A stretch of 64,000 bases of DNA from Bolinopsis microptera (taxonomy: Eukaryota > Ctenophora > Tentaculata > Lobata > Bolinopsidae): positions 14,623,340-14,687,339 of the forward strand of contig NC_087081.1 in NCBI RefSeq assembly GCF_026151205.1, written 5' to 3'. Under the pieces are notes generated by a model. That model was not told the origin of the DNA and ran no database searches. It worked only from the letters and a program-made list of their open reading frames with translations. Below are positions 13,431 to 54,527 of this stretch, piece after piece. The position numbers and the translations under genes are program-made. Position 1 is the first letter of the stretch; every line of letters starts with the position of its first letter.

Positions 13431-13454
13431 AGGAGGTCCCATCTGCGCGTGCCG

Positions 13455-14833
13455 GGGTGAACTTTGAAAGTAAAAGAGTTGGAGACTTCCGGTTTTTTGT
13501 AACATGTTCCTCTTTTAAAAGTAACGTTACCTCTCCAGGAGGAAAATTCAAGACAACGTAATTGTTGAGTTATATCAAAATCTCCAGAAAAGTCCCCTTT
13601 TGGGCCGATCAAAAGTTTGCAACTTTAACTTTGCGGATTCCTGTACTCTGGTTGGCTGAATTGTGTCACGTGGTAGCTGCCTGAACATTGGAATACGCCA
13701 CGCGTGCAAATCATGCTTGTTTGTTGTTGTCGCGCGCGAGGTCAAGCCGTCTGTTTAAATTAAACCAACTCTAGTACCACCACCAGCCGGTAACTTTTCA
13801 TGGGTACGAAGTAACCAATTAGGGCTATTAAAAAAGTGACGTTAAGTGAGACCGTGAGCACCACTTCTTGCCAATTTGCTTTTGAACTACGGCCCAATCA
13901 TGAAGTTAAACAGTTCAAGTTGTGTTTTAACGGCAAAATACAGCGAATTCTAGCCCTTGAAAGTTGTAGGTTTGGAAGATCAATACAGCTGCTTTAATTC
14001 TTAAAAGTCTTAAGTTAGAACGGCCAGAACACCCTATTTGGCGTCAGCCAGCTACATGTACTCATACGTTGTATGACCCGCCGCGCACGAAGTGCGCGGC
14101 TCCCCCTGTATCGTCGATAGTGAAGTGACCTATAGTGAAGCGACCGTGGGGGTCACCACGTGATACAAATTGGAGATTATATCTATAGTTATAGTGAATG
14201 AAATCTAGCGTCCGCCAAAACGAAACAACGGGCGCAATTCTTGTTGCAATGATGATGTTCATAATATACTCAACTCTGTACCCGTGTCAATATGTTCATT
14301 ATATGCAAGCCTCTTGATTTATATAACCTGTAATAGACTAATACTATTCTGTATATATCTAATTTCGTTTTCCAAAAAAAATTTATGGCTTAAAATGCCT
14401 ATATCTCAAAAAGAATCAGTTTTTTTTGAAATTTTTTTTGAAATTTTTTTACAGAATCGTAATCAACTATTTATTCATGTAATAAGAAAATCACTTTTTC
14501 TTCAGATTGTGTTTTGTTGGATAATTACTCCTCATACTACTTAACAGGTACACGGAGTAATTGTTTATTTATTTTCGAAACGAAATAATAAAGTAATTTA
14601 AGGAAAGATGATGTATTAAACAATTCACATTATACAAAACATCATTTTAACATATCTATTTAAATCTTGTTTTTGTCAACTTAGAAATATCACTTTGCTC
14701 AGCTTTACCAGAGTTCTTGCTAATTACAAAGAATTAAGCAAGGACAAGGTTTACAAAGCTGGAAGTGAGAGCCGTTATACCAAGGTTACTGAGCGGTACA
14801 ATTAGAGTTTGTATTAGAATAAAATTAGAGTAC
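13455..14833. repeat. 1.4-kb dispersed repeat, copy A
   Basis: Almost identical to 19968-21319 (copy B) over its whole length, differing by a few substitutions and a 15-bp or so insertion near 14116-14135. Partial copy C is split around the Kolobok element (52968-53054, 57546-57900). It includes a GC hairpin GCCGCGCACGAAGTGCGCGGC (14081-14101), tandem TTTTTTGAAAT blocks, and at about 14250-14390 a segment matching the 3' tail of the RLE retrotransposon (38386-38466). No gene is visible; the open frames on both strands are non-coding in character. High identity implies recent copying. Confidence 0.85.
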
Positions 14834-14880
14834 GTGTGTGTTATATTTATATATATATATATTATATTTATGGTGTCTGT
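14834..14880. repeat. (TA)n microsatellite at a junction
   Basis: Short tatatttatatatatatata tract exactly where repeat copy A meets the broken LINE ORF2. It marks the breakpoint between the two. Confidence 0.8.
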
Positions 14881-15054
14881 GTCAATAGTATCATTAAGAT
14901 TCATCTCATTTAGGGAAAGTATGTCTAATTTATGATCTCTAATAAGTTGGGAAAGTTCATTACTTTTAGCTAAATTGAGAAGCCCTCCTTGAATGTTACA
15001 ATGACCAATGCAGAGGTTGTGAAACCTATAAGCTGCATTATTAAAATTTGTCAT
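14881..15054 (-). pseudogene. LINE ORF2 start (endonuclease N-terminus), truncated
   Basis: The minus-strand frame starts with ATG at 15054 and gives LCIGHCNIQGG, then LSQLIRDHKLDILSLNEMNLND, the first strands of an apurinic-endonuclease-like (EEP) domain with the N (HCNIQG) and E (SLNEM) motifs. It follows ORF1 (15210-16862) by 155 bp in the same direction, as in CR1/L2-type LINEs. After about 57 residues the frame runs into the TA repeat and repeat copy A, so the rest of the endonuclease and the whole RT are gone. Confidence 0.7.
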
Positions 15055-15209
15055 CTTGTGAATCTTATCAATTCACAATGGAATGAATAAAAGTTGTAAA
15101 GTTGTGTTTAAACTAAAAAACAGAATAAAAGCAGGTTGTATTTGTCTGGATGTCGTACTGTAAAAATAAAACTGATGGTAGGAGTGTTATGTCAGTATTC
15201 AGCAGTATT

Positions 15210-16862
15210 CTAATGGTGTGCACGATACTTCAAGTGCCTTGCTAATTTAACTATGCCATAATCATTGAGATGGACATTATCCTCTCCATAACTACTAAAA
15301 AATGACGATTTTCTAAAGCCTTTCTTATCACTAAACAAGAAACGATTTGTCTCGGTTGAGAGCAGTTTTACATAGGTGTATTTTCTTTGCAGATTTGATA
15401 TACACTCATTGATATCAGTTATAACCTTGTTTCTGGAGAAACTCTCCCGAGGTAATAAGTTAACAATTTTAATATCAGCTCCAGGTGCCCACTTGTGAAG
15501 GAAAAGTACAAGTTTTTCAATACAATTGTTTGTAAAGTCAAGAGCTCTAGCATCACCAGAAAAACTATCAGGGCACAGAAGTTTAGTCCTCATGTTGCGA
15601 GGGCTGTTCAGGATAGAGTCCACGTCATTTGTACCACACATAAGTACAATGCTTTTCACATTATTGGTATTAAGAGTGTCTTTTCTTACATCTGATTGAA
15701 ACCGTTCATTGATTGCATTGGCTGTGGCACCAGGGTAGCTGAATACATGTGCCTCATGATGTTTGGACGATAGCTTTTCTCCCTCTAATTTGGAGAACAT
15801 ACTAGAGCTAATGTAGACACACAAAGATTTACCAGAATGTTCTATTGATCTAGTCTTAGGGGCCGAGGGTTCAGTGTTCTTAACTTGACTGGAAACATCA
15901 GACAGAGTAGATAAGGTTGCGCTGCCATCAATTAGGCGCAGAGTAATGCTTATTCTCATGGTTTCAGACTTGTCCTGGATGAGGCTGTGTTCAAAGCTGG
16001 TCTGGGATTGTCTGGTCATATTCATTATGTCACCATGGGAGAGGGTGAGGTCAGCAATATGAGCTCTAAGTTTGGATCTGAAGCTTAGGACTCTAGTAGC
16101 CCCTAAAGAGATGGTGGAGATCATGGAGCCTGGTGAAATTGACCTCTCGTCATCCGAGTGAAAGGGAATTCCTTGCTGACCATTTCTATACTTGGTAATC
16201 ATAGCACTATTGAATTTCAATTTTGGGAACTGTGAGCGTAAGCGTTCTAAAATAGACTTTAGGTATGGATTGTCTGCTACTGGCCTTGTGTTATGAAAGC
16301 CTCCATTGTAAGCGTAGGGAAAGTCCCCGTAATATGCAACTGCCCTATTCTCAAACTTATGAGTATAGTGGGTTTCTATATCTAGCTTGGCAGTGTCAAC
16401 AAACTGAAAAACTCCTCGACTCAAATCTTGGTATGGATTGATAGAGTTGGTCACATCATTGTCACCATTTACAGAGTGTTTGGGATTTTCCAAATTGATA
16501 ATTTCTGCTGAATGTTCACTGTCTTCTGCTAATTTGGATAGCTCTTGGGTTAACTCAGAAACAAGATGCGAGGATGACCTATTACTGAGGGGAACATTGA
16601 TAGACTGTTCACAGTGATCAGGTACCTGGGGCAACACAGGGATAAGTGAACCATCGCTGAGGGGAACTTTGAGTGCACTGTCACTTTCTGATAATTGTTT
16701 ATAGAGAAAAGAAATTTGCCGACGAAGACTATCATTATCTCTTAATAGAGTTAAACAATTGGAACATTTATCAGTAGGACAAGAGCCGTTGCTGGGGAAT
16801 TTAACAGAATTCCCTCGATATCTCAGATTGTAATGTCTTGAGCCAACTGGTATTCTAGACAT
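15210..16862 (-). CDS. LINE ORF1 protein: AlkB-like dioxygenase fused to SGNH hydrolase
   Basis: Intact 550-codon frame. Residues 1-165: basic and coiled-coil-like region with a CxxC pair (DKCSNC). Residues about 172-312: AlkB-type 2-oxoglutarate/Fe(II) dioxygenase, starting with AVAYYGDFPYAY. The iron ligands are H235 and D237 (FHSD) and H292 (FEHS). The 2-oxoglutarate-binding arginine pattern is R-I-S-I-T-L-R (303-309). Residues about 345-550: SGNH/GDSL-type hydrolase with a Ser block (YISSSM), CGTND (409-413) and DNVHLND (D528, H531). It lies directly ahead of an ORF2 endonuclease fragment, so it is the first protein of a CR1-like LINE. SGNH domains are known in CR1-type ORF1; an AlkB domain there is unusual. 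All metal ligands are kept, so repair or demethylation of element RNA/cDNA is a reasonable inference. Confidence 0.85.
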   Translation of the reverse strand: MSRIPVGSRHYNLRYRGNSVKFPSNGSCPTDKCSNCLTLLRDNDSLRRQISFLYKQLSESDSALKVPLSDGSLIPVLPQVPDHCEQSINVPLSNRSSSHLVSELTQELSKLAEDSEHSAEIINLENPKHSVNGDNDVTNSINPYQDLSRGVFQFVDTAKLDIETHYTHKFENRAVAYYGDFPYAYNGGFHNTRPVADNPYLKSILERLRSQFPKLKFNSAMITKYRNGQQGIPFHSDDERSISPGSMISTISLGATRVLSFRSKLRAHIADLTLSHGDIMNMTRQSQTSFEHSLIQDKSETMRISITLRLIDGSATLSTLSDVSSQVKNTEPSAPKTRSIEHSGKSLCVYISSSMFSKLEGEKLSSKHHEAHVFSYPGATANAINERFQSDVRKDTLNTNNVKSIVLMCGTNDVDSILNSPRNMRTKLLCPDSFSGDARALDFTNNCIEKLVLFLHKWAPGADIKIVNLLPRESFSRNKVITDINECISNLQRKYTYVKLLSTETNRFLFSDKKGFRKSSFFSSYGEDNVHLNDYGIVKLARHLKYRAHH

Positions 16863-17149
16863 AGTTTATCACAAAAAGATGCTACTGTTCGAAATTTAGT
16901 TAATGATTACAGTACCTTTGTAGCACTCCGGAGGATAAGGATAAGTGATGTCTGATAATCTTTAGGTGATAGATGGGAGTAAACTGCTTTAAAAACCGAT
17001 GTCTGATAGTCCTTAGGATGTCTTTAAGATAACTTTATCGTGCAACAACCATTTACATTGACATACAACCTGTAATGGTCGTTACATTTACCGAGGCATT
17101 AGTTCCCACTGGGGGTCCTCAATAAATGTAATAGATTTGTAGTGTTGTA

Positions 17150-17945
17150 ATTAGTTTAAATTCCATGGCTCTGTCATTCAGCCAGGAGGACCTAGTTGGT
17201 AGGATGGGTGAGACTATAACTTTAGAATATGGACACAAATCACAAATATTCTTGAGCTTCTTCGTCAGCTCATCAGCCCAATGTTTAACATCACCCCTCC
17301 CCTTTTAATATTATTTACACCACAGTGTACTACAACGTTCTTGTATCCTACACAAATAGCAGGGTCTAACTGATCTATTGTGAAACATTCAACTCTTTTT
17401 CCAGGCAGTTTGTGACCAAATGTCCCTTTCCCTGCACCAAACCGGAGGAACCGGGTGTTTGAGTCACCAATAATCAATGTTGCATTGGTGCTGTTGCTAA
17501 CATAACGGAACGTTATACTGAATCTTATGTCCCTCTTCTCAGTGCTCTTATCTATTCTGTGGTCCCAGAGGAACTGGGACTGCTTGCTCATGATATAAAG
17601 ACTGCGTCCCTCTATCGTCTCAATGACTTCCTCATTTGTTGAGCCTTTCATTGAGAACTTAACCGAGCACTGGCTTCCTAAGGATACTGTGAAAATCGAA
17701 CTGTCATGCACAAGCGAGTTCTCGTTGTCCGAGTGTTTGGGGAGAAAGCTGCTCTCATCATTGTACCGGTTGATCAAGCATCGATTAATAACTGTACCAG
17801 GGCAATGCTTCTTTATTCTTGAGGCAAGTTCAACAAGAACATCGGGAAGGTCTTCTGATTTGGGCTTAGCAGCTTTTGCCCCAGGGTAATCATATGCTTC
17901 TCCAAAGCTTATAACTCCATGCCCATTGGAGTTGTGTCTATAGAC
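17150..17945 (-). pseudogene. Second AlkB-SGNH LINE ORF1 fragment, frameshifted
   Basis: Open on the minus strand from about 17945 to 17265. The AlkB part begins GVISFGEAYDYPG, then has the ligands in KHSDNE (H-x-D) and DHRIDK, and the arginine motif RFSITFR. It is followed at once by an SGNH domain with intact block I (IIGDSNTRFL) and HCGVNNI. Near 17290 (aaaaggggaggggtgatg) a frameshift ends the frame, but the next frame continues with KHWADELTKKL and VIVSPILPTRSSWLND down to about 17150. No ORF2 follows. The N-terminus is missing. The protein differs strongly from that at 15210-16862, so it belongs to a different LINE family with the same domain order. Confidence 0.8.
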
Positions 17946-18346
17946 TTGTCAGTGTGTCAGTCTATAGATTCTTATTATAATTTCTATATAGCTATGATAT
18001 TTCACATTCTTCTTCACGTTACTCATTATTATACTCTATACTACTCTTCTCTCTTCCAGGCTCGGAGGCCTGTCTGACGGGACACCACCCCGAACGGTTC
18101 ACCGCACAGTGTGCCCGTGAGCCCAATTTTCTGCAAAAAGTCAGTTTTTTTCTTCAACCAGCCTATTTTCAATTTAAAACCACCCTATCCACCCTAAAAT
18201 TGCATGAGAAATCGTTTAAAGGGGTTTTCAAGATGATTTGAAGGATTTTTGACCTCATATATTGATTTAACTTGATTTTTTGTGTAAAATTACATTTTTT
18301 TGCCGTTTTTTGCCATATTTTTGAACAAATTACAGCACCGGCTACC

Positions 18347-18362
18347 CCCCCCCCCCCCCCCC
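18347..18362. repeat. Poly-C tract upstream of the PHD ORF1
   Basis: A run of 16 or so C ends 11 bp before the ATG at 18373. It could be a non-templated or slippage-prone 5' boundary; it is reported as a landmark only. Confidence 0.9.
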
Positions 18363-18372
18363 TCTACTCACA

Positions 18373-19268
18373 ATGGTTAAACAAACAGAAAAAAATCGCA
18401 ACGCAAGATTCACCGTCCCACCCAAGAAGAAGCTCAGCCTGAATAGCCCAAAGTTCAAGACGCCTGAAATCCGGAGTCCAATGGAGGGAAAATACCAGGG
18501 TAGTACCACACGGAGTAGATCCAAGAGTGAAGGTGACCAGAAGAATGTTATTATTAACTCAACATTAGCTACCACACCGACAAGTTCAGAGAACCAAAGC
18601 CTTCTGCAAATATCCCTTCCCAGCCGCACAGGAGTATCACCACTCACCAGGAATATCACCACTAGCAATCCCTTCTCAGATACTGAAGCAGAGACCTCAG
18701 CCTCAGACAGCAACAGTGCTCCACCGAAATCGAAGCGCAAGAAGAGCAAATGCCCCTGCAAGGCAACTTCAGGCGGGAAGTCTTGGCTCTTGACATGCTC
18801 GCACTGTAACCAAGTCTGGCACTCTGCCTGTGCAAACCTTAAGATAAGAGCAGTGAACTAGCTGGCCAGAAAGCCATTGATGAAATACTTAAGAGTTGGG
18901 AATGCCCTTGGTGCTTCACATGCCCTCATCCCTGCCCAAAAACACATAAGTCTGCCAAACTTGCATTAAAACTGGAGTCAGCATCAGAAGCAAATCAGGT
19001 GTCAGCATCAGTTATTGAATCTCTTGACGGCATGCTTAAGGAAAGATTTGCAGAAATCACCCAACCATCCAACAATCTGATTGATAGTATCCAGGAACAA
19101 CTCAGCTCCCTGTCAGATCAGGTAAAGTCCGTGCAGATCTCTCAGCCACCACCCCCACCACCCTCTAATATGCCCTCCACGTATGGACAGCAGCATCATC
19201 CAAGAGCACCTCCATCAGTTCCAAGGATTAGTAGTAAACCCGCGATGGGGTGGCATGTGCCTCAATAA
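18373..19268 (+). pseudogene. PHD-finger LINE ORF1-like protein, one frameshift
   Basis: ATG 18373 opens 162 codons: a basic, Ser/Thr-rich N-terminus, then a PHD-type zinc finger (CPCKATSGGKSWLLTCSHC, NQVWHSAC). The frame breaks near 18850, but the adjacent frame continues SSELAGQKAIDEI, the closing WECPWCF and then CPHPC, completing the Cys4-His-Cys3 pattern. It goes on to a coiled-coil-like stretch (18999-19268) with proline-rich QPPPPPPS. PHD plus coiled coil is the usual layout of CR1-like LINE ORF1 N-termini, where it is thought to bind nucleic acid or chromatin. It lies head to head with the AlkB-SGNH fragment at 17150-17945, so the two may be inverted halves of one element. Confidence 0.7.
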
Positions 19269-19504: not shown

Positions 19505-19967
19505 TCTTATATAAATCAACAATATTAACTCCCCATCTTCTTGTGGTCATTTTATTAAAGCGGTAGAAATCCAAGTAATTTTAATACGCGGTGCGCAAGG
19601 AATTTCGTTTAAAAATGTGTAGGCAAGATAAGCTTGTAGCGCGATGCGTTACTGTGCCGCTAGATCGGCAATGCGTTACTGTGCCGCTAGATCGGCGAGA
19701 TGCGCTACTGTGCCGCGCCGAGCTGCCATGAATTGACATCGTCAATTAAAGATAAGCCTAAGTGTGGCAGTGAAAGTTGAAAAATAAGTTGCAGAATAAA
19801 TTGCAGTGACTGACTGTCAAATGCATTATCGCAGTTCATTATTTTTTATTTAGCCCAAAATCAGACTTTTCGGTTTAATTCAAAATCTAAGTTGTCCCAA
19901 ATTGTGCTCCTGAGGAGCTAACTTTGAATTCCCAGGAACCCTGACCGGATGGGGCTTAACTTTGAAA
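19505..19967. other. No gene; small satellite of cgatgcgttactgtgccgctagatcgg
   Basis: A unit of roughly 28 bp is repeated about three times at 19637-19717 (gcgatgcgttactgtgcc.., with atgcgctactg variant). Otherwise nothing recognised. Confidence 0.6.
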
Positions 19968-21327
19968 GTAAAAGAGTTGGAGACTTCCGGTTTTTTGTAA
20001 CATGTTCCTCTTTTAAAAGTAACGTTACCTCTCCAGGAGGAAAATTCAAGACAACGTAATTGTTGAGTTATATCAAAATCTCCAGAAAAGTCCCCTTTTG
20101 GGCCGATCAAAAGTTTGCAACTTTAACTTTGCGGATTCCTGTACTCTGGTTGGCTGAATTGTGTCACGTGGTAGCTGCCTGAACATTGGAATACGCCACG
20201 CGTGCAAATCATGCTTGTTTGTTGTTGTCGCGCGCGAGGTCAAGCCGTCTGTTTAAATTAAACCAACTCTAGTACCACCACCAGCCGGTAACTTTTCATG
20301 GGTACGAAGTAACCAATTAGGGCTATTAAAAAAGTGACGTTAAGTGAGACCGTGAGCACCACTTCTTGCCAATTTGCTTTTGAACTACGGCCCAATCATG
20401 AAGTTAAACAGTTCAAGTTGTGTTTTAACGGCAAAATACAGCGAATTCTAGCCCTTGAAAGTTGTAGGTTTGGAAGATCAATACAGCTGCTTTAATTCTT
20501 AAAAGTCTTAAGTTAGAACGGCCAAAACACCCTATTTGGCGTCAGCCAGCTACATGTACTCATACGTTGTATGACCCGCCGCGCACGAAGTGCGCGGCTC
20601 CCCCTGTATCGTCGACTATAGTGAAGCGACCGTGGGGGTCACCACGTGATACAAATTGGAGATTATATCTATAGTTATAGTGAATGAAATCTAGCGTCCG
20701 CCAAAACGAAACAACGGGCGCAATTCTTGTTGCAATGATGATGTTCATAATATACTCAACTCTGTACCCGTGTCAATATGTTCATTATATGCAAGCCTCT
20801 TGATTTATATAACCTGTAATAGACTAATACTATTCTGTATATATCTAATTTCGTTTTCCAAAAAAAATTTATGGCTTAAAATGCCTATATCTCAAAAAGA
20901 ATCAGTTTTTTTTGAAATTTTTTTTGAAATTTTTTTACAGAATCGTAATCAACTATTTATTCATGTAATAAGAAAATCACTTTTTCTTCAGATTGTGTTT
21001 TGTTGGATAATTACTCCTCATACTACTTAACAGGTACACGGAGTAATTGTTTATTTATTTTCGAAACGAAATAATAAAGTAATTTAAGGAAAGATGATGT
21101 ATTAAACAATTCACATTATACAAAACATCATTTTAACATATCTATTTAAATCTTGTTTTTGTCAACTTAGAAATATCACTTTGCTCAGCTTTACCAGAGT
21201 TCTTGCTAATTACAAAGAATTAAGCAAGGACAAGGTTTACAAAGCTGGAAGTGAGAGCCGTTATACCAAGGTTACTGAGCGGTACAATTAGAGTTTGTAT
21301 TAGAATAAAATTAGAGTACGTGTGTGT
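19968..21327. repeat. 1.4-kb dispersed repeat, copy B
   Basis: Near-identical partner of copy A (13455-14833). Its right edge (..attagagtacgtgtgtg) stops at about 21327, only 18 bp beyond the stop codon of the GPI-anchored protein gene on the opposite strand, so it probably supplies most of the 3' UTR of that gene. The left flank (gaaccctgaccggatggggctt) is shared with copy C at 52971-52992 but not with copy A, whose 5' flank was replaced. Confidence 0.85.
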
Positions 21328-21344: not shown

Positions 21345-24309
21345 CTAGAAGAGAGCGTATATAGCTGCGATGAGGGGCAGGAGTAGAGCTGTCATGCTCA
21401 CTGCACTGTTCACTTCAGTGCTCGTTTCCGCGCACTTTTTATCGGTCTTTTCTTGTGCAACTGAACAGGGTCCACATCCTGCGTTTGCTGCGGTGAAATC
21501 TGCCTCTAAATCTGCCGCTGTACCGGGCCTAGAAGTAAATTTATTTTTAAATTACAAGCTATTACGTACAAGCATTTCAAATTTTACACACAAAAAGTGA
21601 CCATGCCATGACTTATACCTGTAAAGTTACTTGCTCCTTTATAAACTTACTTGTTGCACACGTGTTCTGTCATGCTCGCCTTACTCTTGCAGGTGGTCAT
21701 CGCAGCATTTGCCACAAACTCGTCAGTTTTCCACTCGTAATTGGCACACTCGAAGTCGTCAGCCGCTACCTTTTCCACGTTACAGCTTGCAGTGGCACAT
21801 TCTTCACACCCTTCTGCACCATCGCATTCACCACAACCGTACGCGTACGAAGTAATTCCTGCTGCGTATGTAAATTCCGGCCTGAAATTAAACATTGATA
21901 ATATCGGCTTCATTGTAACATAATTAAATTATTAAGATTTTAAAGAATTCGATAATTCACTTATTGATAAAGCGCTCTCAAATCATGAATATGATTTCAT
22001 ATTATTTCATTAAGGGGAGATACACCAAAAACGTTTTTGCTCCGAACATCGATTTTAATTTATATTATGGTTAAATAGACAAACAGAATAAAATTGCACA
22101 CCTTCAAAATTTTCTAAAAATATTCCCTCATCGAGAAAAAAAAAATTTTTCTTTTTCGAAAATTTTTAAAATTTTGAGAAGTCTGTCACTGTAATACCGA
22201 TAGTTCGGCCATTTTAAAAGTTTTTTGGTTGATTTTTTTACTGAACATTACTTACAATCCGTACAAGAAGCCATTGAAAGGATTATATAATTAAACAATA
22301 AATGACGAAGTCACAGACCAAACAAGGTCGAAAAAATAAAAATTGAAATTTTTCCCACTTCTAAAGTTGTACATTTCACCAATCACCCGGGTCAGCAGAT
22401 ATCGCTTCAAAAATTCTTGTGAGTGTAGCTGATGATCATATCAAACTTGTTGGAGTAGGATTTCTCTCAGATTTGAGTTTTAAGCTATGCAATGTGGCCT
22501 CAAACGACTTTTTTTGAAAATAATTTTTACAGAATCGTAATCAGCTTGGTAAGACGAATCTTTTAGTACCAAATAGGTGCTTTTAGAAGACAAATTGTCT
22601 TGAATAATTTTCTAGCTCGAACACAAGGGTCCCCCCTTGTATAAATTTTGTACAAATTGTACACATTTTTTTACAAATTTTGTGTCTTTAAATATTATAA
22701 ATGTCGTACTAAAAGATTCGTCTTACCAAGCTGATTACGATTCTGTAAAATTATTTCAAAAAAACTGATACTTTTTGGTGGTGATTGGTGAAATGTACAA
22801 CTTTAGAAGTGGGAAAAATTTCAATTTTTATTTTTTCGACCTTGTTTGGTCTGTAACTTCGTCATTTATTGTTTAATTATATAATCCTTTCAATGGCTTC
22901 TTGTACGGATTGTAAGTAATGTTCAGTAAAAAAATCAGCCAAAAAACTTTTTAAATGGCCGAACTATCGGTATTACAGTGACAGACTTCTCAAAATTTTA
23001 AAAATTTTCGAAAAAGAAAAATTTTTTTTTTCTCGATGAGGGAATATTTTTAGAAAATTTTGAAGGTGTGCAATCTTATTCTTTTTGTCTATTTAACTAT
23101 AATATAAAATAAAATCGATGTTCGGAGCAAAAACGTTTTTGGTGTATCTCCCCTTAAATCCTTATTAACACAAAAAGAGAAAAGAGTAGTTTGTCTCAAA
23201 CTTGCGAATATAATCAGTTTGCATGTTATGTGCATGTTGGCTACGTACCCCTTGCATTTTGTAGCAGCAGCATCATCTCCCGCACACAACTTATCTTCGA
23301 CCTTATCACCAACAGTTTGGAAGCACTTGATGGCTGAAAAGTTAACTTGTATGAAGGAGTATTACACCATTTTATATGTTATAGATATTTTGGTAACCTT
23401 TTTTTGCTCTTATGAGTGGGTCAATCATTTATTTTGAATTGTAGTTGACGAAGTGAGAGTCTCCACAATATCTATATTTTGGTCAAATATAGATATTTGA
23501 CCAAAACCCATAATCATGGGTAGAGTGGACCGCTGCCAGTGTCTCTCTTTTCCAAACAAAAGGAAATGATATTAATTTGATTGACCGTTCTCAAATGCAA
23601 ATTGATATCGAGAATGAAATTGGTCGCTCGCGTTTCCCATTCAATAAGCTTTATTACAATCCGTAAGCCGTGAATATGCAAATTTCCTAAAAAAAACGAA
23701 ATTTTATGATGAAATCAATATTTTTCAACGGGTCATAAATTTACTTCTGAATATCGAAAATTAAAAAACTGGTCTGTAGACAATCGTTCGAACTTTTTCT
23801 TGGTTTCAGAATTTTGTGTTGATCTTAGATCAACACAAAATTCTGAAACCAAGATCAACTTGATCTACTTCACAACCCATAATTTAGGCCGTTATTTAAA
23901 GGGTCGATTCCAAACTTGGTAGATTTATGATCTAGTATAGTAAGAAACTATAGCTTTTTAAAAATTTCTGTTTCCCCCCTAACTGATAAAAAAAAATTTA
24001 CTCGAGCGGACTCATCCCGGAATTCAGGGGATACAGCTGAAGCTGAAGGCTTAAAGTCAAATATTTTCTCTTTCGTCGGGATTTTAGACTGAATTGAAGT
24101 TTAAAGGATTACCTCTCGAATGATCAAGACTGCATAGTAATTGTAACTTAACCCTCAGAAGTCAAGTAATGATTCTAAAAGCTTGGGTAAGCTAAAATTT
24201 CACGCAAAATTGTCGACGCGCCAACAATTATGACACCCTGCTGTAGCTTACCATCACAGTTGACGAATGCAAGCATCCCGATGAGGGCGAGGAAAGTGAA
24301 CAGCTTCAT
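21345..24309 (-). CDS. Secreted cysteine-rich GPI-anchored protein (four exons)
   Basis: Exons read on the minus strand: 24309-24252, 23333-23249, 21881-21651 and 21528-21345, 558 nt, 185 residues. Donors are G|GTAAGC, GG|GTACGT and AA|GTAAGT; acceptors are TTTTCAG, TTTCAG and CTTCTAG. Phases agree at every junction and the stop is TAG. The N-terminus MKLFTFLALIGMLAFVNC is a signal peptide. The mature part has 14 cysteines, beginning AIKCFQTVGDKV and including HVCN and GCGPC. The C-terminus has small residues (NSAVS), then a hydrophobic tail MTALLLPLIAAIYALF, the classic GPI-attachment layout. The beginning and the CN motif recall Ly6/uPAR three-finger proteins, but the cysteine number is higher, so the fold is uncertain. 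Surface receptor or ligand role is inferred. All coding joins are clean, so the gene appears functional despite being full of transposons. Confidence 0.85.
22014..23153. mobile_element. Foldback MITE with TTAA target duplication, in intron 2
   Basis: Two long inverted arms (22014 to about 22577 and about 22709 to 23153) meet around a short spacer. The termini GGGGAGATACACCAAAAACG match on both sides and are flanked by TTAA (22010-22013, 23154-23157), the target of Kolobok and piggyBac elements. The left arm has about 120 bp (22388-22510) that the right arm lacks. No coding capacity. It sits wholly in intron 2 of the GPI-protein gene, so the transcript would contain a very long hairpin that splicing must remove. 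Confidence 0.85.
23396..23475. repeat. Fragment related to the hairpin MITE at 38687-39047 and its flank
   Basis: gagtgggtcaatcat... gtgagagtctccac matches, in reverse orientation, the sequence from about 39110 down to 39040 next to the hairpin MITE. It is a solo piece of that repeat in intron 1. Confidence 0.55.
23799..23853. repeat. Perfect palindrome, 27-bp arms, 1-bp centre
   Basis: Left arm 23799-23825 (CTTGGTTTCAGAATTTTG on) and right arm 23827-23853 are exact reverse complements around T23826. It lies in intron 1 of the GPI-protein gene. Confidence 0.9.
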
Positions 24310-30658: not shown

Positions 30659-33600
30659 TAAACCATATCAATATCGCAATGCATCTCATACTGGTTAAGG
30701 TGGTGCCCCAAAGCTCTTGTGCTAACTAAATCAGATAGGATATATCTCTTGTTGTCAATGGCAGAAAGTCACTAAAGTGCACATATATTCTGTTGAACAG
30801 TATAAATCGTGTGATTGTAACTTCTAAGGGTGGTCTGGTTTACATGAACCTCTTCACCTCCAAACAAAACATCCTTGAGGACAACTCTCATGTCTCAAAT
30901 CACGCCTAGCTACTTTACGTTTAACACCCGCTGCTGCCATCTTACCATCAGCTTCATGAATCTTACAACTATATAATTTACTTCGTAATCCTACAAACTC
31001 TGAGCCATACTTGCCCGCAAATTCATCCTTCATTAAACCTGGTACTGCCTTGTTAGTTGAACTGAACAAATAACGTTCCTTGGGATAATTGCTTGAGTCA
31101 AAGTGACGTCCCATATCCTTGAAATCTTTATGCAAATCTGGAGTTTCAACCGAATAAAGTAAACTATCTGTATCCGTAAAACATAATTTAATGTCACTAT
31201 ATTTAACCTTGAGAACATCATACCAGAATCTATACATTAACAACTTTGACATATCCAGAATAGCAGCCCCTAAGTAAATCGGCTTATCTAAAGTTATTGT
31301 GGGTTTTACCATTTCCAGTCCAACTAACTCTGGTGAAAATATCGTGAACCTCTTGAATCCAGGTTTGCTAGTCTGGAACTGATGCTGCTTTCCGTTCTGT
31401 ACCAATCTAATGTTGACCCTCTTCCTAACAGATTCCATACTCTTGCCGAAGAACGAGTTGTTGAGTAGTTTGTAGAAGTCTTTTCCGAACTGTGAAGTAG
31501 CAGCCTGTCGTTTAGCGGTGTTAAAATCAATATATTTCTTTAACCAATCAGTCTGTTCAAACTATAGTACCCTATGAATCCTATCGCAGACACCACCAAT
31601 AGATAAATAATATTGTAAAGCGGCAATGTGAATCTTATGCTTTAACTTTGGAAACAAATTAGGTGCAAGCTTCTTTTGAGGAGCAGCAAAGTTAACCCCT
31701 CTTCTATTCATTGCTATTTGCTTTACGAGTAGCATCCGATACCATACCGTCCTCTATCATCAGAGATTCAGGGAAAGGAGGGAGATCATTGAATCTGTCA
31801 TGGTCTTCAGGATTCGTATGAACGTCACACTCGATGAAGTATCCCTTATCGCTGTCGGGGTTCCAGGCCATGTTGTCACTGACCGTGAGAAGTTTATCCT
31901 GCCACTTGAACTTCGAAGTAGGAAGTTTCTGACACATTGCCCAACCGTAGAGGTTGTTTGCATCAATGTATCCGAGGTAGCTTTCAGGTAATTCAGGATT
32001 GTAATCTGGGAGATGATGGTTATTTGCCTTTGCATACCGATACGTGATTGTACTGATTCCTCCTCGAATAGCCTGCTCAATGAAAGTATAGATATCAGGA
32101 TCACTGAATAATTCTAACTCGACTTTAGTAAATTTTAAGCCTGCATCCCACGTAAGACTTGGAGCGGTATAATAATGAACAGGATCTAAATTATAAGATG
32201 ATAAACACTCTGTCCTATACTGCTGCAGCACCGAATCCAGGAGAACAACGTCAGAGGAAATGTAGAGGTGAACCATGTTTCATTGAGACTCTTCAGAACT
32301 CCTTCCAGACTTTCTGTGCGTGAGCGTAGTCCTCCTCTGTACAGGCCTCTTTGCTGAGATCGTTATAGAAGGCTTCGATGGGTGGTAACTCAGTTTTATC
32401 AAAGACTTCGAAGGATGTGATGTACGAATAGGGATAGACACCTTTACGTAGGAGGAGCTCTAGCTTAACAGGATCTACTACACCATACTTTAGTCGAAGG
32501 AATCGTTGGACCGGTTCGAAGGCTGCTGCAGGTCCTGATGAGCTGAAATTAGCTAAAATATTCTCCAATGAAGCGTTGAGATGCGCATATGAATCAATGA
32601 ATCTGAACTTAGCGGTACTGAATGCTATATAGGACTCCCTGGATTTAATTGAGGTATGATGTTGATATCCCATGGATCTTGTGTGCGTTTTGCAAGTGCC
32701 TTAAGTTATCTCATGTGAGTCATAACCCTTAAGATTGTGGAAGAAAATGGGTATATACTTCGATGTCCGACGTTCTAAGTTACATAACGGGTGAGTGTAT
32801 CCTAAGACTTTGCCGGTGACAATGATCCAGATGTTTCTTATCAGTATGCTTTGATTCACAAATAACACAATTAGGATTTAAATCAAGAAGTGCCCAAGTT
32901 GCCTGATCTACTTTCTCCATTAGTTTTACCATCTCCAATACTGGTCTAAGACGCTCATACAATACATTAAGGGATTCCAGGAACTCGTCGTTAGAATCGA
33001 TTCCATGGAAGACCTGTACCTGCTCATCTTCATACCCTGGTAGATGAGACGATAGTAGATATGCGGCCGTGCGGGGGATATGAACTGCAGTCTTCACGGT
33101 AGCGGCATCACTCTCATCTGCATCGTCTTTAGGCTCTAGGATGCATCCAATGTCAGTGACGATGGTGAATGGATGCTTGATGGTCTTCCTGTAGCTCTTG
33201 AGTCTTGAACTTTAACGTAAGTTGCTCCTTTTCATACTCTTCCTTACTCTTAGGCTTACGTCCTGGAGGGGTCTTTCTCTGCTTCACGTCCTGTGGCATT
33301 ATCACTCGCTGTGGCTTAAACTTACTACAATCTATTTCATGATCCTCCAACCCACTCTTCTTCATAAATCCTCTGAAACATCTCAGACAATAGTATTTCT
33401 CTTTACAGTTCGATGACTTCCTACATAGTTTCGATACGTCCTTCACCTCTTCACTAAAAACCAATGACTTGTCCGTGAGTTCTCCAACAGCAGCATTGTG
33501 ATTGTAGATTCTTCGTTGGGTTCTGTACATAATCTAAGCGGGAAAAATCCTGAGTGTCTCCTGTCCGCCTTTCCGTAGGATATTGAACCGTCATCCCATC

Positions 33601-39939: not shown

Positions 39940-41050
39940 TCATTTACAGATCCGTTTAAAATAGTCTCTTTTTTGAAAGCCTCTAATCTTATTTTAAAAC
40001 TTAATACAGTCCCACAATTCTTGACATCCGAGGGGAGTTTGTTCTAATATGGTCTCACCCTCTCCGGAAGAAAAGAACTGTGGACTTTCTTCATTTTACT
40101 GCTACTTTTACTGCATCTACTGTTTGATACCACATTAAGACCAGATCTGCTCATACTGAACAAACCAGCTCCGTTATTGGCCAAACCACTTATCATTTTA
40201 AAAGATTCAATGAGGTCCCCACGTATTCGCTGCTCTGCCAGCGTTGTTAAATTGAGGATTTCCAGTCGACGACTGTATGGAAGAGTACCCACCTCGTCAA
40301 TCAGACGGGTAAACCGCCTCTGGACGCTCTCCAGCTCCAAGATGATCCCCCAACTTCCATGAGCCGCAACTGGACTCCACAATTGAACACAATACTCTAA
40401 ATGGGGTCTTATCAAAGCTTTGTAAATGGATATCATCACAGATTTTTCCCTGATAATCAGATTTCTAACAATCCAACATATCATTCTGTTGGCTTTAGAT
40501 ATTGAAGCCTTAATCTGTTCATTCCAAAGCAGAGAGTTATGGGTTATAACTCCCAAGTCTTTTTCCTGTACAGATTCTGCCAATGTAACTCCATTAAGAG
40601 AATAACTTGATCTTGGGTTATCGTTAACATCTAAATGCATTACCGAACACTTAGTAGGATTAAACTTTAAAAGCCATTTACTCTCCCACATCTCTAGTTC
40701 GTTCAGATCATTAACTATAGTTTCATACTCGGAGGCATTAGCTATAAGCTTAAGATCATCAGCAAATATTTTAACTTTACTTTTAATGCTATCTGGTAAA
40801 TCATTAATAAATAACACAAATAGTAATGGTCCAAGGACTGATCCCTGGGGAACTCCTGACCATAAAATCTTCCACTCTGAAGTTTCACCTTCTACACACA
40901 CTCTCATAGTTCTATTTGAGATAAAATCTGTAATTGCATCTAAAACTTTACCAGTTATCCCTAGACTCTCTAGCTTGTTAATCAAGCGATAATGGAGAAC
41001 AGAATCGAAAGCTTTACTAAAATCAAAATAAAATAAGTCCACAGGAGCAC
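39940..41050 (-). pseudogene. CR1-like LINE reverse transcriptase, 5'-truncated
   Basis: Open frame 41042-40044 with RT motif A (YFDFSKAFDSV), GVPQGSVLGPLLF, catalytic FADDLK, and thumb (KDLGVITHNSLLW; RPHLEYCVQLWSP). A TAG at 40044-40046 replaces the Trp of the usual WN-LP motif: the same frame continues NKLPSDVKNCGTVLSF to about 39940. The endonuclease and the start of RT are missing at the 5' end, typical of truncated LINE insertions. The nonsense change makes it a pseudogene. Confidence 0.85.
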
Positions 41051-41051
41051 C

Positions 41052-41400
41052 TTCATTTATTAAATTAAGTGTGTTTTATACACATTTGAGTTCACAGTTG
41101 TGAACTTTATCAGATTAGAATTTCAGTTGACTAATATTTTCTTCTCTTAAATCAGCTTATTGTTTAACATTTGATCAATTATTATTCTGTCTTATTTTTT
41201 CCATTTTACACTGTACGATCAGTTGTGAGTGTGTTTTATATACATTTGAGTTCACAGTTGTGAACTTTATTTCCAGTATTTTATGTGACAGAGATTAGTT
41301 TAACTAATATTTGCCTCTCCTAAATCAGCTTATTTTTTAACATTTGATCAATTATTCTGTCTTATTTTGTTCCATTTTAAACTGTACGATCAGTTGTAAT
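41052..41400. repeat. ~170-bp tandem repeat (gtgtgttttatacacatttgagttcacagttgtg)
   Basis: Two and a half units, each with the gagttcacagttgtgaactttat palindrome-like phrase and the cttaaatcagcttatt block. Confidence 0.75.
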
Positions 41401-46010: not shown

Positions 46011-49000
46011 TTAACTGTCAGAGGATGTTATATGGTCGTTTAGAACTGTCCAGAGGTACTTAATTAAATGGGTTTTAAACACGGATGGCCTTGAGATTTC
46101 CCTTAATTCATAAGGGAGTTTATTCCAAAGAATGTGTGCTCTGTAAAAGTAAGACTTAGATATGCCTGAACATCTGGTCTGGCTTGACGTAAGGTTTTGT
46201 GGAACTTGAGGAGAAATGTCACTAATCATACTGAGATCGTCTAGATGTGATCGCCTTAACCTACTTCCCATGAAACGTCGTAAGTAAGGTGGAAATGTCA
46301 CAACTGACATGTCATAAAAAATATTATGAAAATATAATATATCCTTGTAATCAAACCTTACCGAGAGTGGAAGGATATTTAGTTCCTTACACGCTATGAA
46401 ATACCTTTTTTTGTCCCTAAGGCTCAAGTAAATATCATTAAGGATCCACTTCTTGATACCTCTTTTTTGTATCGATTCAAGTTTCTCCACCGAGGTTTCT
46501 GAATGAGGCCGCCAGACAATTGTGCAGTGTTCGAAATGACTTCTAACCTGAGATAGATAGAAGGCCCGACGTTTTTTAGTGTTCTTGGTGAAGTAACATG
46601 TTCTTTTTATAAGGCCTAACCTCTGACTAGCCTTAGAGTATATCATATCACAGTGATGTGACCAATCTAACTTACTATTGATATGTACTCCAAGATCTTC
46701 TTCAATGTCTGTGTATTCGATAGCCGTTTCATTCATTGAGTACACAAAATTAACACTACGATTCATAGAATATGCTCGGGTAATAGAAAGAACGTGACTT
46801 TTTGAAGGGTGAAACACCATCTTATTATGATGAGCCCAATTTTGAAGACTGTTAATATCCCGCTGGAGCAGCCAATGGTCATCCTGGGACGTGATTCTAC
46901 GCCATATTTTTGTATCATCAGCATACATGGTTATATTTGTTTCCGTTGACAAATCCTCTGTAATGTCATTAAGAAAAAGTATAAATAAAGTAGGCCCTAA
47001 AATTGAGCCCTGGGGGACACCTGATCTAACCTGACAGGGAGCAGACATTTTATTTCCAATGACAACCCTTTGGTATCTGTTTTCAAGGTAGCACTTGAAG
47101 AATCTCAGTAGAGATGCATCAATGTTATATTGTTCTTTGAGCTTCAACAGAATTATGTCGTGGTTGACAGAATCAAAAGCTTTTTGGAAATCAAAGTATA
47201 TTATGTCAGTGCGAACATTGTCATTGAGAGATAGGGCTAAGCTGTTACAGAAATTTACTAGCTGAGTTGTACATGATTTCCTACTCATAAAACCATGTTG
47301 ACGTTGATCAATAAGATGTTCACATCGATTGAGCAATTCATCCCGGATTACTTTTTCGTAAACTTTCATAATAATGCTTGTCAGAGAAATTGGCCTATAG
47401 TTGTTAACTTCAATTTTAGAGCCTTTTTTATGAACTGGAACAACGTTTGCCATTTTCCAATCTGCTGGAATACATCCAGTTTTATAAGAGGCTTCAAAAA
47501 GGATAGCAAAAGGCTTAGACAGGCTCACTGAACAGTACTTTAAAATTCTTCCATGGATATTGTCGGCCCCTTGCGCTTTACTTGGATCAATATTTTCAAG
47601 TAAACCTTTGATTTTACAAGCGTCGAAATTGACCTGAAAATCACGGTCACTGGAAAAGTCGATATCTATATCATAATCACTACCCTCTGTAAACTGTTCG
47701 TTAAAATATTTATTGAATAACTCACACTGTCCTTGCGGATCGGACCGTAGGCAACCATTGTAGCTGACTGTTTCAGGAATGCGATTAGAGTTTGATTTAG
47801 ATTTCACAAAAGACCAGAACTTTTTGTTAATGAGATTTCTGTTATCATCATCTTCAAAGTTTGCGTCCAATTTTGCATCAACGAGATTTTTAAAATCCCT
47901 CCTAGCTTTGGAAAATTTTAAATATTTTTTTGGATTAGAAGACTGTTTCCATTCGTCATGTAGTCGCTCCTTTTTTCTACATAAATCAAAGACATCTGAG
48001 TCAAACCATGGGGGTTGAAATTCATCGGAGACAGATATCTTAGGAATATGTGAATTACAATGAGAAGAGAAAATAGTATTGAAAACTGACCAGGCCTCTT
48101 CGACTGGTTTACCACTAAGTAGATGTTCCCAGTTTTCAGAATTCAGTGCATTATTTAAATTGGTCCAATTGGCCCTTTTGAAGCTATAGATTTTTCGTTT
48201 GGTAGACTTTTTCTTTCTAGCGTTAAGTCTTATGTCAAATCTTATCGCATAGTGATCCGACCCACAAATACCATGTTTACTGTCAACAATTAATTCTGAT
48301 ATAATTTCTGGCTTATCCGTCAAAACTACATCTAGAACATTTCCCCTGTAATGTGTAGGGTCTGTTACCAGCTGCTGTAAAGATAAATCATTAAACGTAT
48401 CAATGAATGCTTGTTCAATAGGAACAGAGGAGGAGCCCTCATCCCATCTGACCTGGGGCATATTCAAATCACCAACCAAGGTAATGCTCTGTACTCTTCT
48501 ACGCCTACGGATGTTATGTAGGTATTGCTTGACTCTATCGTGGTTATCATTGCCAAGTGTGCCAACTCTGTAGAACGAGCTAAATATGGATTTTCTTCCT
48601 AACTTGTCAGAAAGCTCAATACTCAAAATCTCGGCTCTACATTTGACAGGAATGATTTTAGATTCTATGTCAAGACAATGTTTTATGGCAATAAGGACAC
48701 CACCCCCATTTACTCTGAATTTCCGACTATTCTGGGGGTCCGGGGGATGAGTAAAGCTAGAACGGTCAAGTCTAAATACTTTGTAATCAGCTGTCGAGAT
48801 GATTTCACTATCATGGATATTGTCCTTTAACCATGTTTCATTATAAACTACAATATCTGGTTTATTGATATAAATAAAATGGTTTAGTTCGTGAATTTTT
48901 GTAGAGTGGAGAGTGGGATTTGCATCTCCAAGTTCACCAAAAGGGATCAAGCCCTGAACGTTACAATAAAAAACTGAGCAGTTTCCCGGGGGTCCTGGAT

Positions 49001-49598
49001 TTTTCATGCTAGGGTTACAAATAAAGATAAGGAGAAAGTTTATGAGTAGTATCCAAAGGTAAAGTGATGCAGTTATATTTTGTAGATATGGGATTAAGCC
49101 TCGTTTGGGATTGTATTTAACAAACAACGTATGTAGTTTTTTACCTCTAATAATTAAGCTACTCATTGTACGTCTAATTGCAATACCAAAGATAACAAGG
49201 TAGAAATTGCAAAGTAAATTACCAAGACTGTTAATATTTAGTAGGAGTGGAGATTTAATAAGCTGTATCAATTTAGCAGGATTTGTAGGTGGGTTTTCCA
49301 AAATACAGGTGGTAAAACAGAGTAACATAACAAGAACGAAATAATAGTACATAAAAGGAAGACATATGTGATGTGGTTTGAATGAGTTTTGAACGGGTGT
49401 GGAGTGTATTACTGAATTCTTTGTTCTCTTCTTGTTTGAGTGGCTATTATTAAAGTAGCCAATACGTTTTCTATATGTTTCTAACTCAATCATGTGAAAT
49501 CTAACAATAAAACGACCGACTGTGGAGCAATAATTCCCTTTACGGTGTGTAATTTGTACTTGTATTATTGTCCGTGTCCAGTTTGTATGCGTGATCAA
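46011..49598 (-). CDS. CR1-like LINE ORF2 (endonuclease-reverse transcriptase), intact
   Basis: An uninterrupted 1195-codon frame. Residues 1-206: N-terminal region with two hydrophobic stretches (MYYYFVLVMLLCF, about 83-95; LYLWILLINFLLIFIC, about 179-194) and NPGP at 200-203. From 207: apurinic-like endonuclease (FYCNVQGL; NETWLKDN; LVGDLNMP; GSDHYAIRFDI). RT follows: NYRPISLTSIIMKVYEKVI, YFDFQKAFDSVNHD (about 804), SGVPQGSILGP, catalytic YADDTKIW (about 892), and the thumb EEDLGVHINSKLDW. The C-terminus HILWNKLPYELRE ends at the TAA/TGA region near 46011. CR1-type ORF2 nicks target DNA and reverse transcribes element RNA. No lesion seen, so the enzyme may be active; the true start may lie inside residues 1-206. 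Confidence 0.9.
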   Translation of the reverse strand: MITHTNWTRTIIQVQITHRKGNYCSTVGRFIVRFHMIELETYRKRIGYFNNSHSNKKRTKNSVIHSTPVQNSFKPHHICLPFMYYYFVLVMLLCFTTCILENPPTNPAKLIQLIKSPLLLNINSLGNLLCNFYLVIFGIAIRRTMSSLIIRGKKLHTLFVKYNPKRGLIPYLQNITASLYLWILLINFLLIFICNPSMKNPGPPGNCSVFYCNVQGLIPFGELGDANPTLHSTKIHELNHFIYINKPDIVVYNETWLKDNIHDSEIISTADYKVFRLDRSSFTHPPDPQNSRKFRVNGGGVLIAIKHCLDIESKIIPVKCRAEILSIELSDKLGRKSIFSSFYRVGTLGNDNHDRVKQYLHNIRRRRRVQSITLVGDLNMPQVRWDEGSSSVPIEQAFIDTFNDLSLQQLVTDPTHYRGNVLDVVLTDKPEIISELIVDSKHGICGSDHYAIRFDIRLNARKKKSTKRKIYSFKRANWTNLNNALNSENWEHLLSGKPVEEAWSVFNTIFSSHCNSHIPKISVSDEFQPPWFDSDVFDLCRKKERLHDEWKQSSNPKKYLKFSKARRDFKNLVDAKLDANFEDDDNRNLINKKFWSFVKSKSNSNRIPETVSYNGCLRSDPQGQCELFNKYFNEQFTEGSDYDIDIDFSSDRDFQVNFDACKIKGLLENIDPSKAQGADNIHGRILKYCSVSLSKPFAILFEASYKTGCIPADWKMANVVPVHKKGSKIEVNNYRPISLTSIIMKVYEKVIRDELLNRCEHLIDQRQHGFMSRKSCTTQLVNFCNSLALSLNDNVRTDIIYFDFQKAFDSVNHDIILLKLKEQYNIDASLLRFFKCYLENRYQRVVIGNKMSAPCQVRSGVPQGSILGPTLFILFLNDITEDLSTETNITMYADDTKIWRRITSQDDHWLLQRDINSLQNWAHHNKMVFHPSKSHVLSITRAYSMNRSVNFVYSMNETAIEYTDIEEDLGVHINSKLDWSHHCDMIYSKASQRLGLIKRTCYFTKNTKKRRAFYLSQVRSHFEHCTIVWRPHSETSVEKLESIQKRGIKKWILNDIYLSLRDKKRYFIACKELNILPLSVRFDYKDILYFHNIFYDMSVVTFPPYLRRFMGSRLRRSHLDDLSMISDISPQVPQNLTSSQTRCSGISKSYFYRAHILWNKLPYELREISRPSVFKTHLIKYLWTVLNDHITSSDS

Positions 49599-54275: not shown

Positions 54276-54527
54276 AACCTTGTTGTTGAACAAGAACTTG
54301 TACCTAGATAAAATAGCTAATAGTAATTACATTTTGAATTGCCATTATTCATACACTCAATAACATAATAATTATAACCATTACATCCAAACGATGCCCC
54401 ATCTCATCACTAATATTCTAAAATATCTGTAATTTTTCCGCTCTTTCGAGCAAAAATATAAACTCTTCATAAACATTTTCTTACCCAAATTTCTCTTTTT
54501 GCAGTTCATAACTAGGTGCACCAAATG

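What the first reader, a model, noticed from the sequence alone, without database searches (positions are those of the whole stretch)
15210..16862. LINE ORF1 with a complete AlkB dioxygenase domain fused to an SGNH hydrolase
An intact 550-residue ORF1 carries all AlkB ligands (H235, D237, H292, R303, R309) followed by an SGNH domain, and sits ahead of a LINE ORF2. SGNH in CR1-type ORF1 is known; an AlkB demethylase/dealkylase in a LINE is, to my knowledge, not a described standard domain. Plant RNA viruses carry AlkB to repair RNA, so an analogous protection of element RNA from methylation is a reasonable hypothesis.
Basis: partly seen in the sequence, partly recalled or inferred. Interest (0 to 1): 0.88.

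Follow-up and report, generated by a model that had tools for sequence, protein, structure and literature searches.

The report
AlkB repair enzyme inside a LINE
A family of self-copying genomic elements (LINEs), present as many near-identical intact copies in what is likely a comb jelly genome, encodes in its first protein an AlkB-type domain with a conserved iron-binding active site that is predicted to strip methyl damage from nucleic acid, likely keeping the element's own RNA readable when it is copied back into DNA.

The parts
14864..17160 (-). Type A LINE copy: complete 5' end, intact ORF1, ORF2 cut off after about 70 codons
   Evidence: blastn to full-length copy L021: 99.7% over 2297 nt; element ends from the comparison of copies L021-L037
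15210..16862 (-). Intact ORF1, 550 aa: coiled coil, AlkB, SGNH
   Evidence: 22 stop-free full-length copies at 95-100% in the same genome, this one counted (lower bound)
16674..16763 (-). Predicted N-terminal helix, taken as coiled coil (residues 34-63)
   Evidence: AlphaFold2 secondary structure, blocks 31-60 at pLDDT 74-89
15924..16448 (-). AlkB (2OG-Fe(II) dioxygenase) domain, residues 139-313; iron ligands H235, D237, H292; R303, R309; base-recognition E239, Y183, Y185
   Evidence: Pfam, fold, conservation, ALKBH2 residue roles (PMC12295762 passages; mapping is my reading of the alignments)
15213..15833 (-). SGNH hydrolase domain, residues 344-550; S354, G378, N412, D528, H531
14864..15054 (-). 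Remnant of ORF2: N-terminus of the EEP endonuclease
   Evidence: PF03372 E 7e-4, below cut-off; 97% identical over 70 aa to intact ORF2 of L021
17268..17948 (-). Type B relic: AlkB C-part plus start of SGNH (block I GDSN present)
   Evidence: PF13532 3e-18; 78% identical to P0210, 74% to P0213
18325..19265 (+). PHD finger plus coiled-coil N-terminal part of a P0117-like type B ORF1, opposite orientation, frame-broken
   Evidence: PHD weak (E 0.007, below cut-off); tblastn to P0117 E 6e-20; blastp to P0117, P0120
50017..51422 (-). Type C ORF1, broken by an internal deletion of about 105 residues that removes the AlkB core
   Evidence: matches P0225 23-176, 177-284 and 390-573 with 285-389 missing
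46011..49598 (-). Open ORF2 behind the type C ORF1: EEP endonuclease plus reverse transcriptase
   Evidence: PF14529 E 9.5e-11, PF00078 E 1.5e-29

Best explanation
The ORF1 protein of this LINE family carries an AlkB-type domain with conserved iron and 2OG ligands next to an SGNH hydrolase domain, and the AlkB part likely works as a demethylase that would clear N1-methyladenine and N3-methylcytosine from the element's own RNA (or its single-stranded cDNA) inside the ribonucleoprotein, so that translation and reverse transcription would not stall. Shown by the calls: the domain matches and predicted fold, invariant iron ligands and arginines, low dN/dS, many near-identical copies with an open EEP-RT ORF2, and the same AlkB-SGNH pair in three LINE lineages. 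Inferred: that the enzyme is active, that its substrate is 1-meA/3-meC rather than m6A or a protein, that it acts in cis on element nucleic acid, and that it acts together with the SGNH part, for which a lipid or membrane role was proposed in ZfL2-1 (abstract and title of PMC3905857). The 5' part that holds ORF1 has been swapped between elements that keep the same ORF2, as expected if ORF1 is under pressure to change while its AlkB core must stay; that cause is inferred.
Against: No assay, no expression data, no substrate. The Asn of the usual N-x-Y 2OG-binding pair is mostly Thr or His in type A (T 84, H 21, N 5, Q 4 of 114 rows with a letter), though Asn in type B (N379 106 of 112). Among the youngest copies the domains are not ranked firmly: pN/pS rests on 49 two-state sites among 16 sequences, 29 of them nonsynonymous (AlkB 0.17, SGNH 0.63, N-terminal part 1.02), and codon-model omega among 17 A1 copies is 0.35 for AlkB, 0.71 SGNH, 0.39 N-terminal. 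The dN/dS of 0.087 is one pair. The mechanism does not explain why SGNH is paired with AlkB here.
Confidence: 0.5

Rival explanations
1. The AlkB part erases m6A from element RNA to escape a host m6A reader or silencing pathway, as proposed for the orchid Gypsy AlkB.
For: A TE-encoded AlkB with m6A demethylase activity in vitro is published (PMC9289625, abstract, passages and section 14).
Confidence: 0.15
2. The AlkB part acts on DNA: it repairs the target site or nascent cDNA, or removes 6mA or other base methylation from genomic DNA at new insertions.
For: The nearest PDB relative by single-sequence search and by fold is the dsDNA repair enzyme ALKBH2.
Against: The ALKBH2 intercalating loop V101-F102-G103 is not conserved by my reading of the sequence alignment (positions 164-166 are mostly T, variable, Y/F), but a conserved aromatic lies one position away, so this is weak. 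ORF1 proteins of LINEs bind element RNA (general knowledge, no call).
Confidence: 0.2
3. The AlkB part is a nucleic-acid-binding or structural module without catalytic use.
For: ORF1 proteins need RNA binding, and AlkB folds bind nucleic acid (general knowledge). The 2OG-binding Asn is not kept in most type A rows.
Against: Iron ligands and both arginines are invariant in three divergent lineages, and dN/dS of AlkB is 0.09 for one subfamily pair.
Confidence: 0.08
4. A chance or assembly artefact, or a host ALKBH gene next to LINE debris.
For: The window copy is truncated and lies among rearranged repeats.
Against: The 14 copies with open ORF1 and open ORF2 lie on 8 large contigs, and most share the same element ends.
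Confidence: 0.01

Closest known systems
CR1/L2-type LINE ORF1 with an SGNH esterase (ZfL2-1; PMC3905857, abstract and passages) and with PHD plus esterase (Kapitonov and Jurka 2003, title seen in a reference list, text not held)
   Same: Coiled coil plus SGNH in ORF1, some with PHD, upstream of an EEP-RT ORF2; profiles with types A and B match 4c1b, the solved ORF1 esterase (1.6e-5; 0.002 for type B alone)
   Different: Here an AlkB dioxygenase lies between the coiled coil and the SGNH domain; AlkB has 0 occurrences in PMC3905857. PAF-AH-like SGNH proteins score better than 4c1b (2hsj 7.7e-13), and the type C profile finds no SGNH chain at E 1 or less
Orchid Ty3/Gypsy elements with an AlkB ORF (PMC9289625; abstract, passages, section 14)
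   Same: Retrotransposon-encoded AlkB with conserved iron and 2OG ligands
   Different: LTR element, separate extra ORF, plants, ALKBH5-like and m6A; here a LINE ORF1 fusion, ALKBH2/3-like, likely ctenophore
AlkB domains of plant RNA viruses (Flexiviridae; PMC544882, passages)
   Same: Genetic parasite with an RNA stage carrying AlkB; RNA protection proposed
   Different: Viral replicase polyproteins, no reverse transcription
Cellular ALKBH2 and ALKBH3
   Different: Host repair enzymes of about 200-290 residues without SGNH (size recalled); here fused to SGNH in a mobile element

Membership tests
AlkB family (PF13532), ALKBH2/3-like | Double-stranded beta-helix AlkB fold | tested here: met
AlkB family (PF13532), ALKBH2/3-like | HxD...H iron ligands and RxxxxxR | tested here: met
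   H235, D237 114 of 114; H292, R303, R309 115 of 115 type A rows with a letter, 116 rows in all
AlkB family (PF13532), ALKBH2/3-like | N-x-Y pair that stabilises 2OG | tested here: inconclusive
   Tyr kept (105 of 114), Asn replaced mostly by Thr or His in type A; Asn kept in type B
AlkB family (PF13532), ALKBH2/3-like | Demethylation of 1-meA or 3-meC | not testable with these tools
   Needs an enzyme assay
LINE (non-LTR retrotransposon) | ORF2 with endonuclease and reverse transcriptase behind ORF1 | tested here: met
   Open in 14 of 17 type A1 copies read and 1 of 3 type A2 copies at full length; PF03372 and PF00078 in L021 and L038
LINE (non-LTR retrotransposon) | Multiple dispersed copies with a common 3' end | tested here: met
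   Shared 3' end with a short CAAT-type repeat tail instead of poly(A) in most of 17; L035 and L036 end earlier
LINE (non-LTR retrotransposon) | Target-site duplications | tested here: inconclusive
   13 of 17 copies testable; 4 of 13 share 7 nt or more against 13 of 156 mismatched pairs
CR1/L2-group LINE | SGNH esterase in ORF1 with S, G, N, D, H | tested here: met
   S354 116 of 116, G378 115 of 116, N412 116 of 116, D528 107 of 109, H531 107 of 109; 4c1b match
CR1/L2-group LINE | Place of the reverse transcriptase in the LINE tree | not tested
   No reference RT set was on hand
Orchid Gypsy AlkB element | ALKBH5-like AlkB | tested here: not met
Orchid Gypsy AlkB element | Gypsy-type pol between long terminal repeats | tested here: not met
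   ORF2 is EEP-RT; long terminal repeats were not sought as such, none showed in the comparison of copies

The most novel reading that the evidence does not exclude
Ctenophore LINEs carry their own nucleic-acid repair enzyme: a two-enzyme ORF1 protein (AlkB demethylase plus SGNH hydrolase) that travels with the element RNA, erases reverse-transcription-blocking methyl lesions or host-placed methyl marks on it before target-primed reverse transcription, and is exchanged as a 5' module between elements in an arms race with the host.
Probability: 0.4. Interest if true: 0.9.

Novelty: new variant of a known kind. Interest (0 to 1): 0.82.

Why it matters
LINEs must keep one RNA copyable from end to end. 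A LINE lineage that encodes a demethylase in its ORF1 protein would show that base methylation of RNA, as damage or as a host defence, limits LINE movement enough to select for a dedicated eraser. It makes that question directly testable: intact near-identical copies exist, the likely active site is known residue by residue, and an iron-ligand mutant is the natural control. It would be an animal counterpart, in a different class of element and nearer to a different AlkB branch, to plant viral and orchid Gypsy AlkBs, i.e. likely independent capture. The genome gave 151 AlkB-domain matches, a capped count that includes some likely host genes; for comparison, human has nine AlkB-family genes (abstract of PMC4051686 in the listing).

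Tried and rejected
Artefact and lone-locus readings were rejected. Viral contigs: two scans, and prokaryote genome contigs: one scan, gave no relative confirmed by tblastn. A target-site-duplication test was inconclusive. A claim that the domain lacks ALKBH2's DNA-intercalating loop was dropped because an aromatic is conserved one position away. The codon-model omegas were not printed at first and were read from the logs; that run left out L007 (internal stop) and, through my start filter, L019 and L020; one search left out L036 and L037; one search used 96 of 289 proteins (250 had the AlkB pattern, 207 a clear A/B/C label, 193 enough SGNH). On that tree type A is not one clade and the two outgroup rows fall inside it, and type C has support 41, so single capture of AlkB is not tested. 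NCBIfam gave only sub-cut-off matches. Six fold rows that join both domains with rmsd above 11 (carbohydrate and xylan esterases) were not used. Repbase and Dfam are not on hand, so an earlier description there is not excluded. One search found 2,214 papers and showed 20, so it excludes little.

Full report

It is a LINE. The window copy spans 17160-14864: the 5' end is complete, ORF1 is intact, and ORF2 breaks off after about 70 codons. In the genome that holds the window (G000, 264.65 Mb) one search lists 82 matches (a lower bound). 23 of them cover residues 1-550 at 95% identity or more, the window copy counted, and 22 of these 23 have no stop; the rest are shorter, more diverged or degraded. 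I read 17 of the near copies with flanks (L021-L037): 17 of 17 have an open ORF1 and 14 of 17 an open ORF2 of 996-997 codons, on 8 large contigs. In L021 the first ATG of ORF2 lies 155 nt after the ORF1 stop, and ORF2 has EEP endonuclease (3.6e-7) and reverse transcriptase (6.3e-36) domains. Most copies share a 5' end about 260-300 nt before the ORF1 start and a 3' end about 5690 nt after it, in a CAAT-type short repeat rather than poly(A); L029, L037 (5') and L035, L036 (3') depart from this. ORF1 identity to the query is 98.7-99.6% in 16 of the 17 and 96.7% in one, which suggests recent activity.

It is not one family. The first search of a 5.8-billion protein set returned 116 relatives, 115 with a precomputed PF13532. 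One of them, P0117, has a PHD-like finger and long coiled coil in front of AlkB-SGNH; a search with it returned 118 proteins, 109 with PF13532. A third search with a mixed alignment returned 83 and brought out a third branch, type C. In all, 288 proteins besides the query. Pieces of all three types occur in this one window: type A at 15210-16862; a type B relic at 17268-17948(-), with a PHD-coiled-coil piece at 18325-19265(+) in the opposite direction; and a type C element at 51422-46011(-), whose ORF1 has lost about 105 residues including the AlkB core but whose ORF2 (EEP 9.5e-11, RT 1.5e-29) is open. In the genome, one search lists 65 matches to a type B protein and one search lists 82 to a type C protein (some of these are type A copies). 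The ORF2 proteins of types A and C are 25% identical, and the RT pieces of A and B 39% over 237 residues, so these look like old, separate lineages. A type B locus (L041) has a 710-residue open frame with AlkB-SGNH followed by ORF2 pieces in three frames, i.e. a broken ORF2. Pfam at E 0.01 on the members: AlkB in 27 of 28, GDSL in 17 of 28 and PHD in 11 of 28 of the type B set; AlkB and GDSL each in 26 of 26 of the type C set. A second model, of P0117, shows both enzyme domains at high confidence; it was not searched against PDB.

Selection. In the 116-row type A alignment the iron ligands, both arginines and E239 are invariant among rows with a letter (114-115), and the SGNH residues nearly so. 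In 19 of 19 type A1 loci of 550 codons all 11 checked residues are kept (L007 among them has an internal stop; L018, with one extra codon, was not scored). Between subfamilies A1 and A2 (one pair, L001-L038) the AlkB part has dS 1.16 and dN 0.10, ratio 0.087; synonymous sites of SGNH and the N-terminal part are saturated. Codon-model omega over 20 ORF1s (17 A1, 3 A2): AlkB 0.114, SGNH 0.103, N-terminal part 0.167. Among 16 near-identical sequences pN/pS is 0.17 for AlkB, 0.63 for SGNH and 1.02 for the N-terminal part, but on few changes; the codon model on the 17 A1 copies gives 0.35, 0.71 and 0.39, so the young copies alone do not rank the domains firmly.

A swap. L021 (A1) and L038 (A2) are 0.35-0.83 identical by window along the 5' UTR, ORF1 and the start of ORF2, then 0.95-0.99 identical from position +1935, about 145 nt into the ORF2 frame, to the end. 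The same holds for 3 of 3 A2 copies read: ORF1 pieces 71-81%, ORF2 part 96-98% identical to L021. ORF2 dS from there is 0.041, against 1.16 in AlkB. One ORF2 backbone therefore carries two different AlkB-SGNH ORF1 modules; template switching or recombination is the simplest cause (inference). On a tree of 96 AlkB domains with two ALKBH rows, labels taken from the SGNH motif need 3 changes (four groups), the least possible, against a shuffled mean of 43, so AlkB and SGNH have mostly moved together. On that tree type B is one side of a branch (support 100), type C too but with support 41, and the ALKBH rows fall inside type A; with two outgroup rows this does not test how often AlkB was captured.

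How it most likely works. ALKBH2/3-type enzymes remove 1-meA and 3-meC. Alanine at ABH2 F124 or E175, which fall on Y185 and E239 by my reading of the alignments, cuts product to about 10% (m1A) or 5% (m3C) (PMC12295762, passages). These lesions interfere with reverse transcriptases, and AlkB treatment raised capture of most 3' tRNA halves, with modest change for intact tRNAs (PMC12140624, passages). A LINE RNA packaged with an ORF1 protein that carries this enzyme would be kept readable. Inferred, untested: activity, substrate, action in cis. A contrary detail is the loss of the usual 2OG-binding Asn in most type A rows.

What is known. AlkB in an orchid Gypsy LTR element, nested among ALKBH5 homologues with m6A demethylase activity in vitro (PMC9289625: abstract, passages and section 14); AlkB in plant RNA viruses (PMC544882, passages); SGNH in LINE ORF1, with activity shown for ZfL2-1 (PMC3905857, passages); SGNH shared among bdelloid retroelements (PMC5408684, passages; 0 occurrences of AlkB). 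My eight searches on AlkB or SGNH and retroelements or ctenophores listed no title or abstract opening that reports AlkB in a LINE; one search showed only 20 of 2,214 papers, most listed papers were not opened, the library lacks most subscription papers, and Repbase and Dfam were not available.

Host. Inferred: a ctenophore, probably Bolinopsis microptera (PMC10232365 passages: 13 chromosome-scale scaffolds, about 254 Mb).

Noticed in passing
L021 against L038-L040, from +1935 relative to the ORF1 start: Two LINE subfamilies share a 97.6%-identical ORF2 protein but have ORF1 modules with AlkB dS above 1: a sharp 5'-module swap.
   Followed up: partly
   Followed up: no
window 13454-14841 and 19952-21327: A 1.39-kb direct repeat, 98.9% identical, flanks the 5.1 kb that hold the type A element, the type B relic and the PHD piece.
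   Followed up: partly
G000:C3:2791255-2793992: The same type A plus type B pairing as in the window, nearly the same span (2737 against 2735 nt), suggesting a duplicated segment.
   Followed up: partly
L041, start of the ORF2 frame (reverse strand 2269 on): The type B ORF2 frame opens with a Cys/His-rich stretch that looks like a zinc finger (seen in the translation, not tested).
   Followed up: no
P0223 (861 aa): A further architecture with a long N-terminal part before AlkB and a divergent SGNH-like C-terminus, outside types A, B and C.
   Followed up: no
window 43492-44898(-) and 40314-41075(-): Two more reverse-transcriptase remnants, 50% and 32% identical to the type C ORF2.
   Followed up: no
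window 54516-55376(+), 55443-56951(+), 31707-32279(-): THAP domain, Mutator-like transposase, and a DNA polymerase B (organellar/viral type) fragment.
   Followed up: no
window 22010-22387 and 22780-23157: A 378-nt inverted repeat, 98% complementary, 392 nt apart.
   Followed up: no
P0287: A protein named as AlkB of a Planctomycetes MAG on a 1363-base contig is 57% identical to type C P0225 over 48% of it; probably animal contamination.
   Followed up: no
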